A stretch of DNA of 64,000 bases from an uncultured Thermoguttaceae bacterium (GTDB lineage Bacteria > Planctomycetota > Planctomycetia > Pirellulales > Thermoguttaceae). The DNA lies in NCBI GenBank assembly GCA_937951625.1, contig CALFBP010000039.1, positions 1-64,000 of the forward strand. The letters run 5' to 3'. Positions within the stretch are counted from its first letter, which is position 1. Each line of letters begins with the position of its first letter. A program made the position numbers and the translations under genes. Shown piece by piece: positions 1,432-15,612 of this stretch. The notes beneath the pieces are model-generated. The model was not told the DNA's origin. It saw nothing but the letters and a program-made list of their open reading frames with translations, and made no database searches.

Positions 1432-2083
1432 GGATTGAGTCTCCTGTTCATGAATAATCGCCCCTGACTATTGGCAGATAGTACCATCCGGGGCAATCGA
1501 ATCCAACAGCCTGCCCGCCGCTGCTGGCAGCCCAACGTCGAATCATCGCCCCCGGATTTCGACTTATTGACAATATAGTTTTCATCATGGGAGTGGTTTT
1601 TTCTGTTTTGATGGCCCTAGGAAGGCGAAAAGCCCGGCAGGAGTTTGAAACGAGGATTGGCTCGGCGGGTTGCGAGTTTTTGCGTCCATTCATCCATCAC
1701 TCGAATTTGCGAGCGGACGCAAAGATCTATGGAGTGCCGGTCTGTTTGGCAGTTGCATCAGTTTTTCGGATGGTGCGTTACCCGCCTAGCGTTTTTGCGC
1801 TGCGATCAGTTGGCTTTGGGGCTGTGATCAACGTTGATCCGATGAAGTAAATAAAAGTAGAGCGGAGCAATCTTCGGTAAAGAGGGTTTACACACCCCCT
1901 AAATGTAGCATCTCAACAGGGCCAAGCCCACGTTTGGAGGCTGCGCGGAGGATTCCGCTGCGCCCCTTTTGTCGATACCATGAACGGCTGGTCCAGGTTG
2001 CGGAGCGACGCTGCGTGTTACAACGATTACCAAGCATAAGTCCGCCGATTCAGGTGGAGACGCCGCCGGTCCATATCAGGATT
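1432..2083. other. Gene-poor spacer between divergent genes
   Basis: About 650 bp separate the minus-strand oxidoreductase from the plus-strand acyltransferase. The open frames inside have no recognisable domain or good ribosome site. The stretch is more AT-rich than its neighbours and should hold the divergent promoters, but I cannot place one reliably: a TTGACA near 1565 has no matching -10 box at the right distance. Confidence 0.4.
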
Positions 2084-2686
2084 ATGGGGGCCGGCTTGGC
2101 GCTGCTCGCCAAGTTTTTGAGTGGAGCGAGCGTCCGCTGGATCGACTCGCAGCCCGACACGTGCCAGCGGGTGTACTTTGCCAACCACACGAGCCATCTG
2201 GACGCCATTGTGCTCTGGTCGGCTTTACCGGCGGAGGTGCGGGCCTTGACCCGGCCAGTGGCTGCCAAAGACTACTGGACGGCGGGCCGCGTGCGGCACT
2301 ACCTGGCCACCCGGGTGTTCAACGCCTTGCTGATCGACCGCACGGAAATCAAGGTCCACCAGAGCCCGGTCGACGTGATGATCCGCGAGATCGGCCACCG
2401 ATATTCGCTGATCGTGTTTCCCGAGGGCGGCCGCACGACGGGAGAGGGAGTGAGCGAATTCAAAAGCGGGCTGTATTACCTCTGCAAAAAGCGTCCTGAT
2501 CTGGAATTGATCCCCGTCTACATCGACAACATGAACCGGATCCTCCCCCGCGGTGAGGTGTTGCCCGTGCCGCTGTTGTCGTCGATCAGCTTCGGTCCGC
2601 CGATCTGGTTGGAAGCAGGGGAACCCAAGGCCGATTTCCTCCGCCGTGCCCGCGAGGCTGTCTTGCGCCTGAAGGAATCGTATTAG
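2084..2686 (+). CDS. PlsC-like 1-acylglycerol-3-phosphate acyltransferase
   Basis: This 200-aa protein carries the acyltransferase block NHTSHLD (H35-x4-D40, catalytic His/Asp) and the glycerol-phosphate-binding motif FPEGGRT at 112-118, diagnostic of the PlsC/LPLAT family. It would acylate lysophosphatidate to phosphatidate at the inner face of the membrane. The frame stays open up to 1934, but the extra 50 residues look non-coding in composition; the ATG at 2084 puts the NHxxxxD motif about 35 residues in, as in relatives. It ends 13 bp before cdsA, the next enzyme of phospholipid synthesis, so the two are probably co-transcribed. Another glycerolipid acyltransferase role is possible. Confidence 0.85.
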   Translation: MGAGLALLAKFLSGASVRWIDSQPDTCQRVYFANHTSHLDAIVLWSALPAEVRALTRPVAAKDYWTAGRVRHYLATRVFNALLIDRTEIKVHQSPVDVMIREIGHRYSLIVFPEGGRTTGEGVSEFKSGLYYLCKKRPDLELIPVYIDNMNRILPRGEVLPVPLLSSISFGPPIWLEAGEPKADFLRRAREAVLRLKESY

Positions 2687-2699
2687 CGATCTGCGATCG

Positions 2700-3791
2700 A
2701 TGGACGCGAAGACCATTGGGTTGGTATGCGGAGTGCTTGCCCTGCTCGGGGCGGCCACGGCGGTGGTTTGGGTGCTCCGCCGCCGGACCGATAGCGGCAT
2801 CGATCCGGCCATTGTGGAGACTTTCTGGTTGCGGATCCGGGCGTGGTGGATTTTCTGCGCCGTGCTGGTCACCGCCTTAGTGATCGCCAAAACGGTCACT
2901 GTAATCTTGTTTTGGCTGATTTCCTTTTGGGCGTTGCGGGAATTCATCACCCTCACGCCCACGCGACCAAGCGACCATCGTGCGCTGTTTTGGGTGTTTT
3001 TCGTGGTCACCCCGCTGCAATTCCTTTTGGTGGGATTGGAATTGTATGGGTTCAAGCTGTACGGTTTGCACAGCATCCTGATTCCGGTGTATGTGTTCCT
3101 ATTTGTGCAGGCGCGGATCGCGATGTCGGGCGACGCCAAACGATTCTTGGATCGCACGGCGAAGATCCAAGCCGGGCTTCTTATTTGTGTGTATTGCTTG
3201 AGCTACGCCCCGGCCTTGCTGGCCTTGCCATTGTCAAAGCCCCCTTCCGCTGCGTCCCGCGTCGAGCAACCCAGCGATCCCACGGCCGACCCGGAGACCT
3301 CGCTTCCAGTCTCCAGTGCCAATTTGCTCAGCCGAGCGTATGAAAACCCCGATCCGGGAAGTAACGCTCGACTGCTTTTTTTCTTTATTCTGATGGTGCA
3401 ACTTAGCGACACCCTTCAGTACGCCTGGTCTCAGATTCCCAGCAAGCACGTGATTGTGCCGTCGATCCACCCGGGCAAGACCTGGGAAGGCTTGTTAGGC
3501 GGGGCCGGAAGCGTGGCCTTGATCGGGGCTGCGCTGTGGTGGGCGATTCCACCTTTCCCCTACTGGTTCGCCGCAGGCATGTCGATCGTCATCGCCTTCA
3601 TGGGTTTTGCCGGGGCGATTACCATGTCGGCCATCAAACGCGATCGGGGGGTCAAAGACTTCGGTACCTTGGTCGCCGGCCACGGCGGGATTCTCGATCG
3701 CATCGACTCGGTCTGTTTTGCTGCCCCCGTCTTCTACCACTTCACCCGCTATTGGCTCATCTACCACGGCTATCTGGACGCCTCCGCGTGA
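2700..3791 (+). CDS. cdsA: Phosphatidate cytidylyltransferase
   Basis: The 363-aa polytopic protein has the CdsA signature at residues 310-336 (S-A-I-K-R-D then KDFG, GHGGILDRID), plus the conserved HPGKTWEG block about 45 residues earlier. CdsA makes CDP-diacylglycerol from phosphatidate and CTP in the inner membrane, feeding all phospholipid head-group branches. Several hydrophobic helices are visible before and after the motifs. A hydrophilic Pro/Ser-rich insert of about 45 residues (roughly 180-225) interrupts the membrane core. It follows the PlsC-like gene by 13 bp, matching consecutive steps of one pathway. Confidence 0.95.
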   Translation: MDAKTIGLVCGVLALLGAATAVVWVLRRRTDSGIDPAIVETFWLRIRAWWIFCAVLVTALVIAKTVTVILFWLISFWALREFITLTPTRPSDHRALFWVFFVVTPLQFLLVGLELYGFKLYGLHSILIPVYVFLFVQARIAMSGDAKRFLDRTAKIQAGLLICVYCLSYAPALLALPLSKPPSAASRVEQPSDPTADPETSLPVSSANLLSRAYENPDPGSNARLLFFFILMVQLSDTLQYAWSQIPSKHVIVPSIHPGKTWEGLLGGAGSVALIGAALWWAIPPFPYWFAAGMSIVIAFMGFAGAITMSAIKRDRGVKDFGTLVAGHGGILDRIDSVCFAAPVFYHFTRYWLIYHGYLDASA

Positions 3792-3903: not shown

Positions 3904-4038
3904 GATGGTTTCCGAGACCGACGGTTCAAGATTCTCTGCCCAGGAGCGAATAGCCCTTCAGGTGTTTGGCTTCGCTCGCTGTCGCGTTGGGGGGAGATCA
4001 CCATGAAGCCCCCACGGTTGAGGAAGGGAGAATACGAG

Positions 4039-4863
4039 ATGATCAAGAAAGCCATTTTGGGGACATTCCTGGTCGTCGTGTTTGCGCTGGTGTTGGTGGG
4101 TCGGGACGCTTTAAGCTATGTGCGAACCTCGTTAGGCTATGTGAAGGAAACGATTCACGAGGCCGTGCCGATCAGCTTCCAAATCGACCGCGCCCGGCAG
4201 ATGATTCGCGATTTGGAGCCTGAAATCCGCAGAAACATGCACCTTATCGCCAAGGAGGAGGTGGAAGTCGAAAGGCTCCAGCAACAAATCGCCAATTTGG
4301 AGGCCCGGCTGACCCAGGAGGAGGAGGAACTGAAAAAGCTGCACGCCGACGTCAAGGCGGGCAAAAAGCAGTTTGAGTATGGCGGCCGGAAATACACCGT
4401 CGAGCAGGTGCGGGCCGACATGGCCAGCCGTTTCGAGCGGTTGAAGACCGGACAGGCGACGCTGAAAAGCCTCCGCGAGATTCACGCCGCGCGGAGCAAG
4501 AGCATGGAGGCTGCCCGGCGGAAGTTGGAGGGCATGTTGGCCGCACGGCGGCAACTCAAGGTCGATGTAGAAGGCCTCGAGGCCCGAATGCACCTGATCG
4601 CCGCGGCCCAGACCACGAGCAACTACCAATTCGACGACAGCCAGTTGGGCCGGGTGAAGGAGTTGGTCAACGATCTGCGGACCCGGCTCGATGTGACCGA
4701 ACGCCTCGTCGCCAGCGAGATGACGTTTTACGATGAGATTCCCGTGAACCAGACCGCAGCGACCAATATCGTGGAACAGGTGGAACAGTACTTTGCCGAA
4801 TCGCAGGTCGCTACCGCAGCGGTCACAACGCCGGGCACGGACACGTTGGCGAAGGCGAAGTAA
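4039..4863 (+). CDS. Membrane-anchored coiled-coil protein
   Basis: The 274-aa product has a single N-terminal hydrophobic segment (about residues 5-22), then a long charged helical region (about 40-210) rich in E, R, K, Q and L with heptad character, so it is likely a membrane-tethered coiled coil. The open frame extends upstream to 3607, but AGGAAGGGAG lies 8-9 bp before the ATG at 4039 and a hydrophobic anchor follows, which fixes the start. The helical region is loosely reminiscent of PspA-type proteins, but I cannot assign a family. It opens a same-strand run with the FHA, kinase and sigma genes, suggesting a cell-envelope role linked to that signalling set. Confidence 0.8.
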   Translation: MIKKAILGTFLVVVFALVLVGRDALSYVRTSLGYVKETIHEAVPISFQIDRARQMIRDLEPEIRRNMHLIAKEEVEVERLQQQIANLEARLTQEEEELKKLHADVKAGKKQFEYGGRKYTVEQVRADMASRFERLKTGQATLKSLREIHAARSKSMEAARRKLEGMLAARRQLKVDVEGLEARMHLIAAAQTTSNYQFDDSQLGRVKELVNDLRTRLDVTERLVASEMTFYDEIPVNQTAATNIVEQVEQYFAESQVATAAVTTPGTDTLAKAK

Positions 4864-4995
4864 GGGCGCAGGCCCCACTGCGGGGAGGCGCGGCCCGGGA
4901 ATGACGACGATCCAGGATGCTCGAGTTTCGCCCCTGAAGTTTCAAGGTCAGGCCCGGTTCCGCGGATTTGAGATATGGTATCTTGAAACCTTCTC

Positions 4996-5685
4996 ATGAT
5001 TCGACTTGCGATCGATCCCTGGAATCCCTCTCCGATGGACCGCTCCTTTGGAAAATCCGGGCGACGGTTCTTGTTGTGGATCGATGCCGTGGGCGGCTTT
5101 TGGGTATGCCTGGATGATACGGTGGTGTTAGGGCAGCCAGACCCGGCGGCGAAGGTCGATATTCCCATTCTGGGCGACTTATCAACTCAACACGCCCGAA
5201 TCCGACGCGATGCAGAGGGATACATGATCGAAGGCCTGCGCGAGACCAGGGTCAACGGACGCCGGGCCGAGCCGTGGGCCCTTTTGGGTCATGGCGCGAC
5301 GATTGCCTTGGGAGAGACTGTCCGATTGCTTTTTCGACGCCCGTTGGTCCTCAGCGCCACCGCTCGACTGGACTTTCTCAGCCGGCATCGCACCCAACCC
5401 TCGAGCGACGCGGTGCTGCTGATGGCCGAGGCCTGCGTGCTTGGGCCGCGACCGACGAGCCACGTGGTCTGCCGCGACTGGCCCTGCGAGGTCGTGCTTT
5501 ACCGCCACGAGGGCGAGTTGTTTTGCCGGGTGGCGAATGTTGGCAATTCGCCGGGCGAGCCTCCCGGCCTTCCAACGGAGGCGGTTTTCGAGATTGACGG
5601 ACAAAAACACCGGCAGCGGGGGCAGATTCACCCCAACGCCCACGTGGTCGGAGAGGGGTTTTCCTTATGTCTAGAAGAAATTTGA
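4996..5685 (+). CDS. Tandem FHA-like domain protein
   Basis: The 229-aa protein looks like two forkhead-associated domains. The first (about 43-114) keeps the phosphothreonine-binding Ser and His (LSTQHARI, S63 and H66) and a VNG turn at 86-88, but the usual GR arginine is Q47 (VLGQ). The second (about 145-228) begins CVLGPRPTSHVVC and ends with IHPNAHVVGEGFSLCLE; it is more degenerate. FHA domains read phosphothreonine, and a Ser/Thr kinase gene begins 73 bp downstream, so this protein is a plausible reader or substrate of it. No signal peptide is seen. A shorter start at ATG 5035 is possible. Confidence 0.75.
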   Translation: MIRLAIDPWNPSPMDRSFGKSGRRFLLWIDAVGGFWVCLDDTVVLGQPDPAAKVDIPILGDLSTQHARIRRDAEGYMIEGLRETRVNGRRAEPWALLGHGATIALGETVRLLFRRPLVLSATARLDFLSRHRTQPSSDAVLLMAEACVLGPRPTSHVVCRDWPCEVVLYRHEGELFCRVANVGNSPGEPPGLPTEAVFEIDGQKHRQRGQIHPNAHVVGEGFSLCLEEI

Positions 5686-5758
5686 AGTGTGATTCGGTAC
5701 AATCGAAGGGGGGGCGGGAAGCAAGAGCTCGGCGCCCCCCGCCCCACCGGTCTGATCC

Positions 5759-7831
<2,073 letters not shown>

Positions 7832-7917
7832 GGAGGAGCTTCGACCTCTCTTCGAGGGCGTCAGATTCCCGCAAGCGGCGAGGGATTCGTCGGATCGCGG
7901 AGATGGAGGCGAAAAGG

Positions 7918-9012
7918 ATGGCGTTCGCTGTGCTTCCTGCTTGGGACATCATACCTCGACGCGCCGCCCAAATACCACCTGTGCCATCCGTGGCGTATTC
8001 TTCGCGTCTTGAGAAGGCGGTTTCGCTCCTCATGTTTTTGGGGGCCGCGGTGATTGGGCTAGACAACCTTTTTATTCGCGACCACGCCCGCCGATTCTCC
8101 AAAACGTCTTTCAGCCTACCGCTGGTGGTTCTGGGAGTCGTCTTTTTTTCGTTGGCAGTGCCGCTGGCTACTTACGGACTTTCAGGATCATTCTCGCCGC
8201 AGGCGTCCGGAGGGGGGCATCCCGATCTTGCGGTCGCCACGCCCCCCAACGCTAGCCAAAATCCCGCGTTGGCCATCCCCGCCACCCCCAAATCCAACGG
8301 CGTGCCGACGGCCGAAGGCAAGGATTCGTCGAATGCTGGGGGGAACGGTTCGTGGGTGTTTGGGGAGTTCCTCGGGGTGTTGAACAAGGCGTTTGCCAAC
8401 GCTTTGCGAATGACGTTTGTCCGGGAAGTGCCCGACGAAACGGCCGCGCCGCCCGATCTGCTTTCCGGTCTCTCCCCATCGGCGGCATCCGCCACGCGCC
8501 CGGCTTGGGTCGACGCCCCGCCTTCGACAACCAGCGAGGCGTATGAAATCGCCGTCAAGGCCGGGCCGTGGAAAACGCCCGAAGAATGCCAGGAAGCGCT
8601 CGATGAGCAAATCGCCGGGGCCATCGACGATTACGTTGCCAGGTGGATCGGAGATCACGCCCGCGGTCAGGTGGTCCTTCCGGCGGACTACGTTCGACGC
8701 TTCCTCATCAAGGACCAATGGTTGGAAAAGATCAACACGTCGCTGGGCGAGATGTACAACCTCCACGCCTTGTTGGCGTTCGATCGGCAGATTGACGGCC
8801 GACTCCGCGATGCGTGGAATGAGACCGTGGCCGCGGCGCGGCTGGTGCTGGCGGTATTCGTTTTCTTGGGAACGATCTTGCCGTTGAGTGTGATTTATGG
8901 ATACTTGAGAATCGACCAGGCGACCGGTGGGGTGTATCGACGACGGCTGCGGCTGGCTGCCGCGGGGATATTGATCTTGATTGCCGCCGGAGCCGTGTAC
9001 GCGCTTTCGTGA
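7918..9012 (+). CDS. Membrane protein of unknown function in the kinase cassette
   Basis: I do not recognise a family. The 364-aa product has two hydrophobic helices near the N-terminus (about 33-50 and 65-85), a long Ala/Pro/Ser/Thr-rich stretch (about 90-200), a charged helical region, and two C-terminal hydrophobic helices (about 300-320 and 342-362). The open frame extends to 7192 but that part overlaps the kinase gene in another frame; the ATG at 7918 has GGAGG 8 bp upstream. An ATG at 7903 is the alternative. It sits between the kinase and sigma genes, so it may be a membrane partner or substrate of either. Confidence 0.75.
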   Translation: MAFAVLPAWDIIPRRAAQIPPVPSVAYSSRLEKAVSLLMFLGAAVIGLDNLFIRDHARRFSKTSFSLPLVVLGVVFFSLAVPLATYGLSGSFSPQASGGGHPDLAVATPPNASQNPALAIPATPKSNGVPTAEGKDSSNAGGNGSWVFGEFLGVLNKAFANALRMTFVREVPDETAAPPDLLSGLSPSAASATRPAWVDAPPSTTSEAYEIAVKAGPWKTPEECQEALDEQIAGAIDDYVARWIGDHARGQVVLPADYVRRFLIKDQWLEKINTSLGEMYNLHALLAFDRQIDGRLRDAWNETVAAARLVLAVFVFLGTILPLSVIYGYLRIDQATGGVYRRRLRLAAAGILILIAAGAVYALS

Positions 9013-9084
9013 GGTTTTCCCCTCGGTAGCCGTCAGTCCAAGGGGCGACCCGGGCCATCGCCATCCGCATGGCCCAAATGCCGC

Positions 9085-9735
9085 ATGACCCCAGCGAACC
9101 AATCCGATCTTTTGCTCGTCCAGCGTGTCCGTTCGGGCGAGGCGGAGGCGTGGGAAGAGTTGATCGCGCGCTTCGAGGGCCGCTTGCTGGCGTTCGTCGA
9201 GCATCGCACGCGGAACCGCGCGGCGGCGGAAGACGTGGTCCAGGAGACGTTCATCGGCTTCCTCACCAGCCTGCCGAATTACGACGCCCGACGCTCGCTG
9301 GAAAGCTACCTTTTCTCGATTGCCGCACATAAGCTTACCGACCATCTCCGCCGCGAGGGACGAAGACCAACGTTGATGCTGACCGCGTCCTCCGACGGCG
9401 ACCCCAGCAGTTGGGAGCCGCAAGGGACGGTCCGGCCGGCAAGCAGCATCGTACGCAGCGGGGAACGCCGCGAGCTGGAAGAATCGGCCTTGATCGCCGC
9501 GCTTCAAGAGCAAATTACCGCTTACCAGCGCCGCGGCGACTGGAAAAAGGTGGCGTGCATGGAACTCCTCCTGGTGCGCGGCTGGACCAACAAGGACGCG
9601 GCCGCGGGGCTGGGCCTTTCCGAGCAACAGGTGGCCAATTTCAAGTTCGAGTTTTTGGCCAAGCTCCGCGCCAGCGTGCGGAGGCAGGGGCTGCCCGAGG
9701 ATGTCTTTCCCGAACTCTACGAAGATTCGCGATGA
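9085..9735 (+). CDS. ECF-type RNA polymerase sigma factor
   Basis: The 216-aa protein shows sigma region 2 (about 9-95): an acidic helix around EAWEELIARF, then AAAEDVVQETFIGFL and the DNA-contacting LESYLFSIAAHKLTDHLR. A divergent region 4 helix-turn-helix lies at about 168-195 (GWTNKDAAAGLGLSEQQVANFK), after a linker of about 60 residues. Size and layout fit group 4 (ECF) sigma factors, here of a planctomycete-like subtype. The last bases overlap the next start (ATGA), so the two products are translationally coupled. It closes the kinase/FHA cassette, which suggests that phosphorylation could control its activity, as proposed for some kinase-linked ECF groups; that link is inference. Confidence 0.9.
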   Translation: MTPANQSDLLLVQRVRSGEAEAWEELIARFEGRLLAFVEHRTRNRAAAEDVVQETFIGFLTSLPNYDARRSLESYLFSIAAHKLTDHLRREGRRPTLMLTASSDGDPSSWEPQGTVRPASSIVRSGERRELEESALIAALQEQITAYQRRGDWKKVACMELLLVRGWTNKDAAAGLGLSEQQVANFKFEFLAKLRASVRRQGLPEDVFPELYEDSR

Positions 9736-10145
9736 GTGAAACCTTCACCCGAGCCGAGCTGGAAGCGTATCTCGACGAGGCCCTGCCTGCCGAACTCATG
9801 GCCCGGATCGAACAGGCCCTCCGCAACGACCGAGGCTTGCTCCGTCGTTTAGCCGCCATCCGTGCGCGGCGCGACGCCGGCGTCCACTCGCTCGGCGAGA
9901 TTTGGCGACGGCATCGGCTGACTTGCGCGACGCGTGAGCAACTAGGCAGCTTCCTGCTGGGCGCGCTGCCCCAAGACGCGGCCGATTATCTCACGTTCCA
10001 CCTCGAGGTGGTCGGATGCCGTTATTGTCAGGCCAATCTCGCGGACCTTCGCAAGCAACAGGCCGAATCCAGCGACCTCGCCCACTCCCGACGACGCAAG
10101 TATTTCCAATCCAGTGCGGGCTATTTGCGGCGAGAAAAACGTTGA
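9732..10145 (+). CDS. Small sigma-factor partner with a His/Cys motif
   Basis: This 137-aa protein starts at an ATG overlapping the sigma-factor stop by four bases. It is soluble and helical, with a conserved-looking segment near residues 95-115 that reads FHLEVVGCRYCQANLADL: one His, then C-x2-C. This is similar to, but spaced differently from, the zinc HxxxCxxC motif of anti-sigma factors. No membrane helix is seen, so it is not a classical membrane anti-sigma factor. I infer a regulatory partner of the sigma factor from coupling and motif. The basic C-terminus (RRRKYF, LRREKR) is unexplained. Confidence 0.75.
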   Translation: MSETFTRAELEAYLDEALPAELMARIEQALRNDRGLLRRLAAIRARRDAGVHSLGEIWRRHRLTCATREQLGSFLLGALPQDAADYLTFHLEVVGCRYCQANLADLRKQQAESSDLAHSRRRKYFQSSAGYLRREKR

Positions 10146-10235: not shown

Positions 10236-13200
10236 TCATTCAAATAGTAGACATCCAAAGCCTTCCGGAACCAACTCCACGGCGGCGGGAAAACTGAACG
10301 CCTGGAATCCGACGCCGGGGACGAGCCGCTGGATGCCGATGGCCCAAGCCGTGCCTTTTCCCACCGCCTCGTTAAGGAGTTGTTCCAGGGGGATGGCGAT
10401 TTCCGCGGTCCATGCCGTTTCCGATGAGGCGGCCGCGACAAACCACGTGGGATTCCACGTCGTGTCGCCCCAGCAGTCGTCGCGCGTGAAGCCGCGGTCG
10501 TCCACGGCCAGACGGTAAAAGGTAGTGTAATCCCGGTCGATGTCGAGGAGGAACTCGACGCGGTCATGGGCCGCCAGTTCGGCGTCCCGACGCCGGGGAC
10601 CAGCCGCCGGTTCGTATCGAAAGCCCGGGGCCTTGCGGACTTCCACGGCGATGTAGAGAAATTCCCGATCGTAAGCCATGCGGGCCGTGGCCGGCCAGGA
10701 AGCGTCGTCATTCAGCGGACTTTGCAAAGGCACGGCTTCAGCCTGTTGCCACACCGCGTCGTCCAGCACACCATCCAAATACGGCCGGACGGTGGCCGGG
10801 CGGCAACGCAGCAGGGGCTTGGGCGCGACGCCACGCGGATCGGCCAGCCACTGCTCCAGTTGGGCACAGCGCCGCCAAGCGGGATCGACCGCCCCAGCCC
10901 GCTGAGCGGCGTAGAAACGCTCGGCCAGTCGTGGCTCCGCGCGGCGTTGCATTGCTGCCAACGGAAAGCCGACCCAAGGCTGGGCAAGCAGCTCAGGCCG
11001 CGTCTGCTGAAGTAGGTTGCCGAGGGCCACGGCCCGTTCCCTGAGCGTTTCCGATCGGTCCGCGCCGAGCAGGGCCGAAGCTTGGCGCACGGTTGCTTGT
11101 TCCCGCAACGCCGCCCGACAACGCGCCTCGCCGCTGGCGTAGTATTGAACCAGCCACGTCTGAGCGGCGCGCGACAACGATTGGGCCGCGTACTCCCGGC
11201 TGATGACCTGGAACACTTCGGCCGCGCAATCCCACTCGCCCGAGGCGTGATAACTTTGGGCCAATTGATAAAGCAATTCAACGGCCGCATCAGGCTCGAT
11301 CCCTTCGGCCAGGTCGCGGACCTCGGCCACCAAGGCTGCGCGGCTCCTCGGATCGTCTTTTCCACGCTGAATGATTGCCTGGGCGTTCTGTCGACGCTGC
11401 GCAAGCCGCCGGAGGAGGTCCGGGCTTTCCATGGTTCCCGCAAGCGGCAGCCGTCGACAATCGCTTTCCGGAGCCAGCTTCAGTCCCGCGAAAAAATCCC
11501 GCCCTCGCCGATCCGGGGCCGCGAGATCGAACGCCACTTGAAAGCCGAGCATTTGCGGGGCGGGCTCCACGCGATTGGCTACCAGTCCCCGGGCCCTGCT
11601 CCCCACCTCACCCAACGTGCGTCCCAAGCGATCGGCCAATTGGCTGGACGTCACTTGAAGCGGAGCGGGCGTCGTTGGTCCAAGGGCCGAAACCACGCGA
11701 GTCACTTGCCAAGGAGCCAGGCCCATCGTGTCGCCGTGATTCCTATCCGCCCCCGGTTCGGCGGCCGCAGCAACGGCCTTGAGCGCGGTCTGGGCAAGCA
11801 GACGAACCGCATCCGTCTCGGCACGCGCTGGGTCGTGTATGACGACCACCTCCGGCCGCCAGGTGCGTAGCAGCCGGATCAAATACGCCTCGAGCGATTC
11901 CAGTCCCCGCCCTTCATAAATCGCGTCCCAGGCTTGGACGATCTGGGCGGATGGCATTTCCAGCCCTGGCTGCCTCAAAGGGAATTGCCAGGCAGACAGA
12001 CCGGCGCACGCCCCAACACGGACCGCGGCTTCCTGAAACCGATCGGCGAAGGGGACCTCATGACGTGGGGGCAGCTCGGCATCGCGCCGAAATACACTCA
12101 CTGCCGCGGCCAAATAGCCGTCGTTGCCTGCACAGCGGGCGAAGAGTTCCCAGGGCACGTCCTTCGGTTCACCGAAGATGCCCAACAAAGCCACGCGGGC
12201 ACCGCCCGACCGCTGGACTTTCCAATTCCGTCCTCCATCCGTGGTCGCTAGGATCGTGCCCAACGCCCCCACGGCCCAGCCATGTTCGTCATCCACGAAA
12301 TAGAGGGCCTCCAAGGGCAGGTTTTGGCCGGTGGGAAACGCTGACCAAGTGACTCCGGCGTCGGGCGTGAAGAAGACCCGCGTGCCTGGATCGCCCGCGA
12401 TCCAGCACTTCGGCCCTCGCACCGCCAGGGCCTTGAAGTCGAAAAAACGCGAACCGAGCGTTGCCATTTCGCCAGGCGGGGCGTGCCATGTGAGGCCAAG
12501 GTCTGCCGTGCGCCACACCATGCCGCCTTGACCGACGATCCAGCCACCGTTGGGGCTCGTCAGTTCCAAGCGGTGCGGCTGACGAAGGTCGCTTGAGGAC
12601 CGTGGCAAGTCGCTAGGCGCGAGACCTTCAAGGGTCACGGAAACGGCCGAGTCCCTGTCCACGACCGCCCCCGTGCGACGATCGAGAAAGTCGCCCGCTT
12701 GATGACCGAGGGTCCGCCAGCCAGGGACAGGATCCCAACTCCTCCCACCCGTCTCGGTGATAAAGATGCCCGAGGGCTGGAACGCCGACGGCAACCCGAT
12801 CACTACCCCCAGTCGCGGCCCAAAAAAACGCACTCGCCTCAGTGGCGGCACAAGCAGCTTGGTGTGACGATGCCAATGCTCACCACCATCCTCCGTGAAC
12901 AGCAGAACGCCAGAGCCGGTGTGCAAACAGGGATGCAGTTCCTCGCCCGCCGCCCAACCGAGTTTCGAATCGACAAAACAAACCGAGTGGAGGCGGCAGG
13001 TCACGCCCGATGATTGAAGAACCCAGCGCCGGCCGCCATCGCGTGTGTGCCAGATCGTGCCCCGATCGCCGACTGCCCAACCGTGCTGCCGATCCACGAA
13101 GTAGACGTCGGCCAACGTGGCGTCATTGCGGAGCGTGTCGCTGGCCAAGGGGTCTACCGTCGGCGATTGTCCCTTTCGTTCCCCCGAGACCTCATCGTGC

Positions 13201-13394
13201 GGCGAATCGGTCTCTTCCGCGGCGAGTCGTTCTTCTTTGGGGAGGAATCGAGCGGAAGCGAATCCGCGGCCAGGGCGATCCTCGGCTTCGAGTTCGGGAA
13301 CAACCCCTGCCAAGCCCGCTAAGATCGTGATGCTCCAGGCGACGCTTGCCCGACCGGCCCCAACTCGTCGAACTTCCCTTCCTTGAGAAGACAT
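10236..13394 (-). CDS. Giant exported YCF48-type propeller protein with C-terminal CBM9-like domain
   Basis: The 1052-aa protein has an N-terminal hydrophobic segment (about 17-38), then repeats of the YCF48/BNR kind, such as VYFVDRQHGWAVGDRGTIWH and ALYFVDDEHGWAVGALGTI, forming a beta-propeller at about 90-405. A middle part (about 420-870) includes helical, TPR-like stretches. The last 170 residues (from RPYLDGVLDDAVWQQAE) resemble the CBM9-like domain of exported carbohydrate-binding proteins, with DRVEFLLDID and EIAIPLEQL. Propellers of this type help assemble photosystem II in phototrophs, but in heterotrophs they occur in varied secreted proteins. It is convergent with the sigma-partner gene. 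The function is unknown. Confidence 0.88.
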   Translation of the reverse strand: MSSQGREVRRVGAGRASVAWSITILAGLAGVVPELEAEDRPGRGFASARFLPKEERLAAEETDSPHDEVSGERKGQSPTVDPLASDTLRNDATLADVYFVDRQHGWAVGDRGTIWHTRDGGRRWVLQSSGVTCRLHSVCFVDSKLGWAAGEELHPCLHTGSGVLLFTEDGGEHWHRHTKLLVPPLRRVRFFGPRLGVVIGLPSAFQPSGIFITETGGRSWDPVPGWRTLGHQAGDFLDRRTGAVVDRDSAVSVTLEGLAPSDLPRSSSDLRQPHRLELTSPNGGWIVGQGGMVWRTADLGLTWHAPPGEMATLGSRFFDFKALAVRGPKCWIAGDPGTRVFFTPDAGVTWSAFPTGQNLPLEALYFVDDEHGWAVGALGTILATTDGGRNWKVQRSGGARVALLGIFGEPKDVPWELFARCAGNDGYLAAAVSVFRRDAELPPRHEVPFADRFQEAAVRVGACAGLSAWQFPLRQPGLEMPSAQIVQAWDAIYEGRGLESLEAYLIRLLRTWRPEVVVIHDPARAETDAVRLLAQTALKAVAAAAEPGADRNHGDTMGLAPWQVTRVVSALGPTTPAPLQVTSSQLADRLGRTLGEVGSRARGLVANRVEPAPQMLGFQVAFDLAAPDRRGRDFFAGLKLAPESDCRRLPLAGTMESPDLLRRLAQRRQNAQAIIQRGKDDPRSRAALVAEVRDLAEGIEPDAAVELLYQLAQSYHASGEWDCAAEVFQVISREYAAQSLSRAAQTWLVQYYASGEARCRAALREQATVRQASALLGADRSETLRERAVALGNLLQQTRPELLAQPWVGFPLAAMQRRAEPRLAERFYAAQRAGAVDPAWRRCAQLEQWLADPRGVAPKPLLRCRPATVRPYLDGVLDDAVWQQAEAVPLQSPLNDDASWPATARMAYDREFLYIAVEVRKAPGFRYEPAAGPRRRDAELAAHDRVEFLLDIDRDYTTFYRLAVDDRGFTRDDCWGDTTWNPTWFVAAASSETAWTAEIAIPLEQLLNEAVGKGTAWAIGIQRLVPGVGFQAFSFPAAVELVPEGFGCLLFE

Positions 13395-13598: not shown

Positions 13599-14795
13599 CT
13601 AGCGTACGCTGGTGCGTTCGACAAGAACGGCCGATGTGTCATCATGCCGGCCGCTGCCTCGCGTGAAGGCCTGCGAGTCGACGAAGAGCTTGTCCAGGGC
13701 CTCGTCCAAGCTGAGATGCGCTGCCGACTGAAGGGTCTTGATGATGCCTTTTTCGCCGAACTGATCGTACATGTCGCCGCCTGCTGGGAAGGCGTCGGTC
13801 AGGCCGTCGGAAAAGATGAGCAACCGGGAATCCTCGGGCATTTCGACGCTGACCGAATGATAAGTTTCGTTGGGGTCGATCCCCAGCGGCATGCCCGCTT
13901 CAGCCTCGCCGCCCAATTGGATCACTTCATTGGTCCTCAAGTTGTGCAAAAGAGGCATGGGGTGGCCGGCCGAGGTGTACTGGAGCCGGTGCGTTGCGGT
14001 GTTCAGCGTGCAATACATCATGGTGATGAATCCGCCCTCGTCCTGAACGATGGCCTTGTTGGCCAATCGTTGATTCACCTCGGCCACGAAATGGGCGGTG
14101 TCGACGTAACTCTTGTCTTGGATCATGTGGATCAACGTCCGCATGGTCATGATCGACATACAGGCCTTGATGCCGTGCCCGGCGGCGTCGCCCACCAGCA
14201 GAATCAAATTGTTGGCATCCATGCTGAAAATATCGTAGTAGTCGCCTCCTGCCAGAATGACAGGCTGGTCGCCGAGCACGCGAATTTGGGCAGGTTCGTA
14301 CCGGGCGGCGATGCGGTAGCCCGGGGGGGTCGGAATGTCCCGTGGAATGACCGACTCTTGAAGCTGGCGGACCGATTCGATTTCCTCGCGGAGTCGTTCA
14401 GCCAACTGTTTGGAGCGTTGAGCGAGCATCGCTTGGTTGGCTGATTCGATCACGGATCCCAAAAGAAGGATGAACTCGCCGCCCGCGTCCCGGGTAACGA
14501 AATTGTGCAACCCGTGCGACATGAAGCGGGCGAGATGGACCACTTCGCCCTGGTAGCAGGCCCCCAGGACCGGGGCTTCGGGCTGCAAGGCGCGAATCTT
14601 GGTAAACAAGTCGAAGGACTTCTCCAGCGAGGGGAAATTGAGGGCCATGAGGATAACGTCCCAAACCCCCATGGCCGCCGCGTTTTCAAACTCTTCGGGA
14701 TCGGTGGTAATCTTTGCCTGGATGTCCCCGACATTGAGAAACAGCCCGATCGTTTCCGCCTCGTTGGGATTGTCCCAGCCGACTAGGACCTGCAT
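13599..14795 (-). CDS. SpoIIE/PP2C-type serine phosphatase with degenerate receiver domain
   Basis: The C-terminal half (about 150-395) is a SpoIIE/RsbU-type phosphatase: GGDYYDIF, then GDAAGHG, FSDGLTDA and RHDDTSAVLVE supply the metal-binding acidic residues. The N-terminal 110 residues look like a response-regulator receiver, but at the phospho-acceptor position the motif reads VILMALNFP, with A51 where aspartate is expected, so it is probably a pseudo-receiver. A helix rich in E, R and Q (about 120-145) joins them, as in RsbU-like proteins. Start at ATG 14795 follows AGGGAG; the longer frame to 14972 is less likely. Typical targets are anti-anti-sigma factors, none of which is in this window. 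Confidence 0.9.
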   Translation of the reverse strand: MQVLVGWDNPNEAETIGLFLNVGDIQAKITTDPEEFENAAAMGVWDVILMALNFPSLEKSFDLFTKIRALQPEAPVLGACYQGEVVHLARFMSHGLHNFVTRDAGGEFILLLGSVIESANQAMLAQRSKQLAERLREEIESVRQLQESVIPRDIPTPPGYRIAARYEPAQIRVLGDQPVILAGGDYYDIFSMDANNLILLVGDAAGHGIKACMSIMTMRTLIHMIQDKSYVDTAHFVAEVNQRLANKAIVQDEGGFITMMYCTLNTATHRLQYTSAGHPMPLLHNLRTNEVIQLGGEAEAGMPLGIDPNETYHSVSVEMPEDSRLLIFSDGLTDAFPAGGDMYDQFGEKGIIKTLQSAAHLSLDEALDKLFVDSQAFTRGSGRHDDTSAVLVERTSVR

Positions 14796-15612
14796 CGATT
14801 GCTCCCTGACGTAGATTCCGTCACGGTTTATAAAACTAGGCCGCCGATTGTAAGCAAGATGGGCCACCCTCGGTAGGAGTCGCAACTCCTCCACAAGCCC
14901 CGGGCACCATCTCGTAAGTTCTATTCTTCCAGATTCGACTCGAAAGATACAGTAGTCTAAGCCACTCTCCAAGAGCGTTGAAGCAAAAAACTGTTACTGC
15001 TCCCTCCGACCCCTGAAAAACCTCAAAACCGTCCCTGCATCGCAACAGCATGTCGCTGCACGCCAGCAAAGTGGTGCGGTTTGGGAACGACAATCATTTG
15101 ATTTTACCAGCCACGGAAAGCACTGAGAGAGTCGCAACCCAATAAAAATGAATCATTTACGATGCTGCTTGGTGCCTTATAGAAATCTTGGTATGGAAAT
15201 TGCAAGCAGGTACCGGTAGAGCCGTGACCAGTCAAAATGGAGCGACCTTAGCTGATCCAGGGGAGGCTTCGGCTATGAAGACCCACGGCAGCAAAGTTCT
15301 CGACCCGATTTGCGAAACCCGTGTGCTGGAGTGGCTTGTGGTGCCCACCCGGGAGTGTCCCGACGCGGCTTCGGAAACCAAAATTGCAACCAAGTACTTT
15401 CGAATGCCCCACCCCTCGTCGGGATCGCTGAGGGCCTTCGTTCGACCGGTAGAAGTGCGACGAAGTCGTCGACGCGTCCTCTTTTGCCAAGAATTGGGGG
15501 TAGATTTGTAGACCACAGGTGGCATTCGGCGGGATCCGTCTCCAGACAGGCTGGAGTTCGGTCTAGACGATCCCTCCAGGATTCACCACCTGAACGAACT
15601 GATGATTTCCCA
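14796..15612. other. 817-bp spacer without a convincing gene
   Basis: This region between two minus-strand genes should contain the phosphatase promoter and the end of the lipoprotein operon. The part near 15100-15190 is AT-rich. One plus-strand frame (ATG 15275 to 15511, 78 aa) has AGGGGAGG upstream but no recognisable content, so I leave it uncalled. I see no RNA gene here. Confidence 0.35.

What the first reader, a model, noticed from the sequence alone, without database searches (positions are those of the whole stretch)
4039..10145. Compact cassette: membrane coiled coil, tandem FHA, membrane-anchored kinase, membrane protein, sigma factor and partner
Six same-strand genes combine a phosphothreonine writer, a likely reader, two membrane proteins and a transcription switch with a translationally coupled partner. 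Seen directly: the domains and order. Inference: kinase phosphorylation controls the sigma factor or its partner, perhaps sensing envelope state through the multi-pass kinase. No membrane anti-sigma factor is present, so phospho-control could replace it. The assembly is not one I know as a named system.
Basis: partly seen in the sequence, partly recalled or inferred. Interest (0 to 1): 0.6.

Follow-up and report, generated by a model that had tools for sequence, protein, structure and literature searches.

The report
Kinase-linked envelope-stress sigma-factor module
Six neighbouring genes in a planctomycete bacterium form a very old, widely shared signalling unit that probably lets a membrane protein kinase control a transcription switch for repairing the cell envelope, and comparison of genomes revealed the likely DNA switch-site it uses and genes it turns on.

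Summary
Six same-strand genes (CC, FHA, STK, MEM, SIG, PART) lie at 4039-10145. They are an ancient module, not a local accident. SIG orthologues occur in 104 of 146 genomes of the order and the coiled coil in 108. Both are present in 102 and both absent in 36. The order CC-FHA-STK-MEM-SIG(-PART) recurs across the order and into a sister group of the class. Deeper lineages carry FHA-STK-SIG-PART-CC, or the first order with SIG and PART fused. Where SIG has moved away, CC-FHA-STK-MEM mostly stays together.

PART is a soluble, zinc-finger, anti-sigma-like protein. The FHA protein lacks the usual phosphothreonine-contacting Arg (2 of 35), so it is a doubtful reader.

New: a promoter-like site, CCAAGAT-N13-GCGAA, with ECF spacing, lies 90-190 bp upstream of CC in 34 of 39 loci and 16 of 22 held-out loci. 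Order-wide, a stricter form precedes LemA, NfeD-like, SPFH, PH-domain, DUF4097 and ABC-transporter genes, resembling a sigma-W-type envelope-stress regulon. Phosphorylation is untested. SIG keeps its core-binding ED motif, so the EcfP mechanism does not fit. Kinase-linked planctomycete ECFs are a known kind; this is a new variant.

The parts
3926..3951 (+). Promoter-like element TCAAGATTCTCTGCCCAGGAGCGAAT (AAG-N16-CGA), 111 bp before the CC start; proposed SIG-dependent promoter of the operon
   Evidence: Enriched dyad in 27 of 39 CC upstream regions against at most 5 in shuffles; PWM score 30.8; unique exact match in the window
4039..4863 (+). CC: membrane-anchored helical hairpin/coiled coil, 274 aa
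   Evidence: TM at 2-20; AF2 model pLDDT 83 with hairpin helices 45-106 and 121-195; orthologues in 108/146 order genomes
4996..5685 (+). FHA: FHA domain plus degenerate second FHA-like half, soluble
   Evidence: Pfam FHA 20.8 bits; GR Arg lost in most orthologues
5759..7831 (+). STK: Hanks-type kinase with about 7-TM C-terminal part
   Evidence: Pkinase 1.1e-50; GxGGFGEV, VALK, HRDLKPGN, DYG, APE present
7903..9012 (+). MEM: membrane protein, N-terminal TMs, conserved RPxWV...GPYxTxxEC beta-alpha-beta-beta domain (about 200-294), two C-terminal TMs
   Evidence: no known fold matched clearly
9085..9735 (+). SIG: ECF sigma factor, 216 aa
   Evidence: Sigma70_r2 3e-16, Sigma70_ECF 2.6e-6; orthologues 46-72% identical in 104/146 order genomes
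9732..10145 (+). PART: soluble zinc-finger anti-sigma-like protein, 137 aa, overlapping SIG by 4 bp; C-terminal S-S/T tail
   Evidence: C65,H90,C96,C99 invariant in 38; zf-HC2 over threshold in L035 and L065; fused to SIG in deep lineages

Best explanation
The locus encodes an envelope-stress sigma system controlled by a membrane kinase. Proposed working: SIG is an ECF sigma factor kept in check by PART, a soluble zinc-finger anti-sigma-like protein. The multi-pass kinase STK, with FHA and MEM as scaffold or sensor proteins, responds to a membrane or envelope signal and changes the SIG-PART pair by phosphorylation; the conserved C-terminal S-(S/T) tail of PART and the Ser-rich sigma2-sigma4 linker of SIG are the best candidate sites. 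Freed SIG transcribes from CCAA(G/T)AT-N13-GCGAA promoters: its own operon, starting with the membrane-anchored coiled coil CC, and envelope-maintenance genes elsewhere (LemA, NfeD-like/SPFH, bacterial PH-domain, DUF4097, ABC transporters, further ECF sigmas). Shown: genes, conservation, fusion, promoter-like site and its neighbours. Inferred from family knowledge: ECF and anti-sigma roles. Inference only: that SIG (not another factor) reads the site, that STK phosphorylates PART or SIG, and what the signal is.
For: Phylum-wide linkage of the same families in two arrangements. SIG/CC co-occurrence 102 both, 36 neither, 8 discordant. SIG-PART fused in one ORF in L086-L090, L228, L229, L235. PART Cys/His invariant 38/38. 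Dyad motif 27/39 against at most 5 in shuffles; 34/39 CC loci by PWM; 16/22 held-out loci, including loci where SIG is unlinked. Stringent site: about 100 in 142 genomes against 1 control match; 62/107 module-bearing genomes against 2/35 lacking it, p=1e-8. Targets: LemA x4, bPH_2 x3, DUF4097 x2, sigma x2, ABC x2, Band_7, zinc peptidase, CvpA; the kinase gene itself in G020 (L370).
Against: No direct evidence of phosphorylation or of SIG binding the site. SIG-only loci carry no site in front of SIG. The motif is not seen in the deeper lineages L221-L238. No SIG residue tracks the AAG/AAT variation of the site (small sample). LemA cases are confined to one family. Module-lacking genomes are mostly one family of small genomes, so the presence/absence test is partly phylogenetic (excluding it, p=0.003).
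Confidence: 0.5

Rival explanations
1. CC-FHA-STK-MEM is a separate kinase signalling or scaffold unit for membrane or cell-division structure; SIG-PART is a classic ECF/anti-sigma pair that merely transcribes that operon. The kinase does not act on SIG or PART.
For: The module breaks repeatedly between MEM and SIG, leaving CC-FHA-STK-MEM intact (L201-L205, L208, L209, L211-L216); the site precedes CC, MEM or STK rather than SIG.
Against: In deep lineages STK lies directly before SIG-PART (L088, L089, L221-L227), and SIG and CC are almost never found apart in the order.
Confidence: 0.25
2. The CCAAGAT-N13-GCGAA site belongs to another regulator or another sigma factor that controls the operon; SIG has different targets.
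For: No direct binding data; no site before SIG; other ECF factors exist in the genome.
Against: AAG-N16-CGA spacing equals that of ECF promoters AAC-N16-CGT; site count tracks presence of the module; SIG is the sigma factor genetically tied to this operon.
Confidence: 0.18
3. Direct activation as in EcfP/EcfK (ECF43): the kinase phosphorylates region 2.2 of SIG to create the negative charge needed for core RNA polymerase binding.
For: A kinase gene is next to an ECF gene, as in ECF43 (PMC8999054, PMC13147305).
Against: SIG keeps the charged (E/D)D-x-V-Q-(E/D) motif in essentially all of 61 homologues, whereas ECF43 members lack it; a linker site as in EcfK remains possible.
Confidence: 0.05

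Closest known systems
Kinase-linked ECF sigma factors: EcfP/PknT (Vibrio), EcfK/PknS (Xanthomonas), ECF43
   Same: ECF sigma gene beside a transmembrane Hanks-type kinase
   Different: ECF43 has no anti-sigma-like partner and lacks the region 2.2 acidic motif; here both are present, plus CC, FHA and MEM
Planctomycete ECF groups ECF59, ECF61, ECF62, ECF217 (predicted phosphorylation-controlled, table in PMC8999054)
   Same: Planctomycete ECF with neighbouring kinase; SIG may well fall in one of these groups
[quoted passage not shown]
   Same: Soluble Cys/His protein next to an ECF; kinase control of such a protein has precedent (PMC8999054)
   Different: Spacing H-x5-C-x2-C rather than H-x3-C-x2-C, an added zinc-less first repeat, a conserved C-terminal tail, and fusion to SIG in some lineages
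Bacillus subtilis sigma W envelope-stress regulon (own knowledge)
   Same: Predicted targets are of the same kind: PH-domain, DUF4097, NfeD/SPFH, ABC-type genes
   Different: Different sigma and promoter sequence; sigma W uses a membrane anti-sigma (RsiW) and proteolysis
PspA/Vipp1 (ESCRT-III superfamily)
   Same: CC model has a long helical hairpin; best Foldseek hits are PspA/Vipp1
   Different: CC has a TM helix and no profile-level similarity (hhalign probability 1.7%)

Membership tests
ECF sigma factor | sigma2 and sigma4 only, about 200 aa | tested here: met
   Sigma70_r2 3e-16 and Sigma70_ECF 2.6e-6 over residues 11-183, 216 aa
ECF43 (EcfP/EcfK type) | Acidic DxxD motif of region 2.2 replaced by uncharged residues with a phosphorylatable Thr | tested here: not met
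   (E/D)D-x-V-Q-(E/D) retained across 61 homologues
ECF59/61/62/217 | Match to the group model of the ECF classification | not testable with these tools
   Models, member sequences and the classification paper not held
Zinc anti-sigma (ZAS/zf-HC2) | zf-HC2 domain with Cys/His zinc site | tested here: inconclusive
   Window PART 22.0 against cutoff 22.2; orthologues L035 (23.6) and L065 (28.4) pass; C/H/C/C invariant 38/38 but H-x5-C spacing
Membrane anti-sigma factor | Transmembrane helix in the partner | tested here: not met
   No hydrophobic segment in PART
Phosphothreonine-binding FHA domain | Conserved G-R, S, H and N residues | tested here: not met
   Arg in 2/35 (Gln 28/35), S 32/35, H 31/35, no N-G-T
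Hanks-type Ser/Thr kinase | Gly loop, catalytic Lys, HRD, D[FY]G, APE | tested here: met
   All motifs in the window protein; Pkinase 1.1e-50
PspA/Vipp1 (ESCRT-III) | PF04012 or profile-profile similarity | tested here: not met
   No PF04012 hit; hhalign 1.7%, like reversed controls
PspA/Vipp1 (ESCRT-III) | ESCRT-III hairpin fold | tested here: inconclusive
   Top Foldseek hits PspA/Vipp1 but E at least 0.077; VIA Z 11.5 tied with unrelated hairpins

The most novel reading that the evidence does not exclude
A class-wide planctomycete counterpart of the sigma-W response in which a multi-pass membrane kinase, rather than regulated proteolysis, releases the ECF factor by phosphorylating the S-(S/T) tail of a soluble zinc anti-sigma. 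A membrane-anchored PspA-like coiled coil would be both the main product and a feedback sensor.
Probability: 0.27. Interest if true: 0.78.

Novelty: new variant of a known kind. Interest (0 to 1): 0.6.

Why it matters
Planctomycetes have unusual membranes and cell division, very many kinases and ECF factors, and almost no assigned regulons. This links one conserved kinase/ECF set to a defined promoter sequence and a list of envelope genes, so it can be tested directly in cultivated relatives. If the kinase acts on PART, it would be a second way, besides EcfP-type phosphorylation, for a kinase to gate an ECF factor.

Tried and rejected
CC as PspA/ESCRT-III homologue: suggested by Foldseek ranks, not supported by profiles or by Z-scores. 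Genome-wide counts of the looser motif as evidence: rejected, because it can be read in frame as Lys-Ile...Ala and is over-represented even without the module. Covariation between SIG residues and the AAG/AAT base: nothing clear. Known fold for MEM: no clear match; other folds are not excluded. Promoter/terminator consensus scan: uninformative. Upstream genes PlsC/CdsA as module members: not conserved neighbours. Jogler 2012, Casas-Pastor 2021 and Wiegand 2020 could not be read.

Full report
WHAT IS THERE. The kinase has all catalytic motifs. The FHA assignment is marginal (20.8 against 20.7 bits) and the second half has no Pfam match.

CONSERVATION. SIG orthologues (46-72% identity) occur about once per genome in 104 of 146 genomes of the order, the Pirellulales judging from named relatives such as Bythopirellula, Mariniblastus and Roseiconus. 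CC occurs in 108 of 146; both are present in 102, both absent in 36, and 8 are discordant, mostly incomplete assemblies. Losses are shared in at least three lineages (all of family f8, genus g21, several f1 genera). In most loci the order CC-FHA-STK-MEM-SIG-PART is kept. In class relatives (f21, f22) CC-FHA-STK-x-SIG is kept. In other families of the phylum a second arrangement appears, FHA-STK-SIG-PART-CC, all on one strand. In eight deep loci SIG and PART are one ORF, a fusion that argues for a direct functional link. Where SIG stands alone, CC-FHA-STK-MEM is in most cases intact elsewhere in the genome.

PARTNER AND READER. PART has two zf-HC2-like repeats. The second carries Cys65, His90, Cys96 and Cys99, invariant in 38 homologues; the first has lost its ligands. 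Orthologues pass the Pfam threshold in the first repeat (L035) or the second (L065). PART has no TM. Its C-terminal S-(S/T) motif is conserved in nearly all homologues. The FHA domain has Gln in place of the pThr-contacting Arg in 28 of 35 and lacks the usual Asn, so phosphothreonine reading is doubtful. In deep lineages the FHA protein carries a long, probably repeat-containing N-terminal part.

SIGMA. Region 2.2 keeps (E/D)D-x-V-Q-(E/D) in essentially all 61 homologues, unlike ECF43 factors activated by phosphorylation there (PMC8999054, PMC13147305). The sigma2-sigma4 linker has conserved Ser residues (S120 in 59/61, S125 in 53/61), which are possible but unproven phosphosites; similar Ser residues may be common in planctomycete ECFs.

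COILED COIL AND MEM. The CC model (pLDDT 83) is a TM helix plus a long hairpin. PspA/Vipp1 lead the Foldseek list, but not significantly. VIA scores tie with unrelated hairpins, and profile comparison gives no support. I treat CC as PspA-like in shape only. MEM has a confident beta-alpha-beta-beta domain without a clear match.

PROMOTER. An unbiased dyad count upstream of each gene found CCAAGAT-N13-GCGAA upstream of CC in 27 of 39 loci (largest dyad count in ten shuffles 5) and nothing comparable upstream of SIG, FHA or MEM. A matrix from these 27 scores at least 14 upstream of CC in 34 of 39 loci, 90-190 bp from the start. It also scores upstream of MEM or STK in some loci, with two unrelated hits in the roughly 60 loci scanned. 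In held-out loci it marks CC in 16 of 22, including many where SIG is not linked. The spacing AAG-N16-CGA equals the ECF pattern AAC-N16-CGT (PMC8103513 gives AAC and CGT; the 16-bp spacing is my knowledge). In the window it is at 3926-3951.

PREDICTED TARGETS. A stricter pattern has about 100 sites in 142 order genomes against one for the reversed control, none in family f8, and a site in 62 of 107 module-bearing genomes against 2 of 35 lacking it (p=1e-8; p=0.003 when f8 is left out). Genes just downstream include LemA (four in this set plus L301, all family f7), PH-domain, DUF4097, Band_7, NfeD-like and PspB-like small membrane proteins (the last two by eye), ABC ATPases, a zinc peptidase, CvpA, two sigma factors and the kinase gene of the module in one genome. 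From my own knowledge this is the kind of content of the B. subtilis sigma W regulon. In this genome the other good sites are an ABC transporter gene (L267, score 21.4) and a 405-aa ORF (L241, 20.7). Some sites are probably inside coding sequence, and gene calls were mechanical.

VERDICT. An ancient kinase/ECF module with a zinc anti-sigma-like partner, most likely an envelope-stress system. The promoter and targets are new computational predictions. The phosphorylation step is inference. Kinase-linked planctomycete ECF groups are already predicted in the literature (PMC8999054), so I rate this a new variant of a known kind; the classification papers that might list this locus could not be read.

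Noticed in passing
window 1934-2686 and 2700-3791, + strand: PlsC-like acyltransferase and CdsA-like phosphatidate cytidylyltransferase directly upstream on the same strand (named from sequence by eye); not conserved neighbours of the module in other genomes.
   Followed up: partly
window 13599-14972, - strand: ORF with a receiver-like N-terminal half and an SpoIIE/PP2C-type phosphatase-like C-terminal half (by eye), a possible Ser/Thr phosphatase a few kb from the kinase.
   Followed up: no
window 10236-13394, - strand: Large ORF with repeated WAVG..GTI motifs like YCF48-type repeats, convergent with the module.
   Followed up: no
L086:8367-10883, L087:7293-9986: In deep lineages the kinase membrane part contains a TM2 domain (Pfam E about 1e-9 to 1e-10).
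   Followed up: partly
G000 contigs C1, C7, C9, C22, C32 and others: A repeated element CCAAGATCTTTGCAGACGACGGGAA occurs about ten times in the genome; it matches the motif with one mismatch but looks like a dispersed repeat.
   Followed up: no
L037, L040, L041 between SIG and PART: An extra gene of about 235-250 aa (or an about 1-kb gap) separates SIG and PART in family f16 and some others, so the overlap seen in the window is not universal.
   Followed up: no
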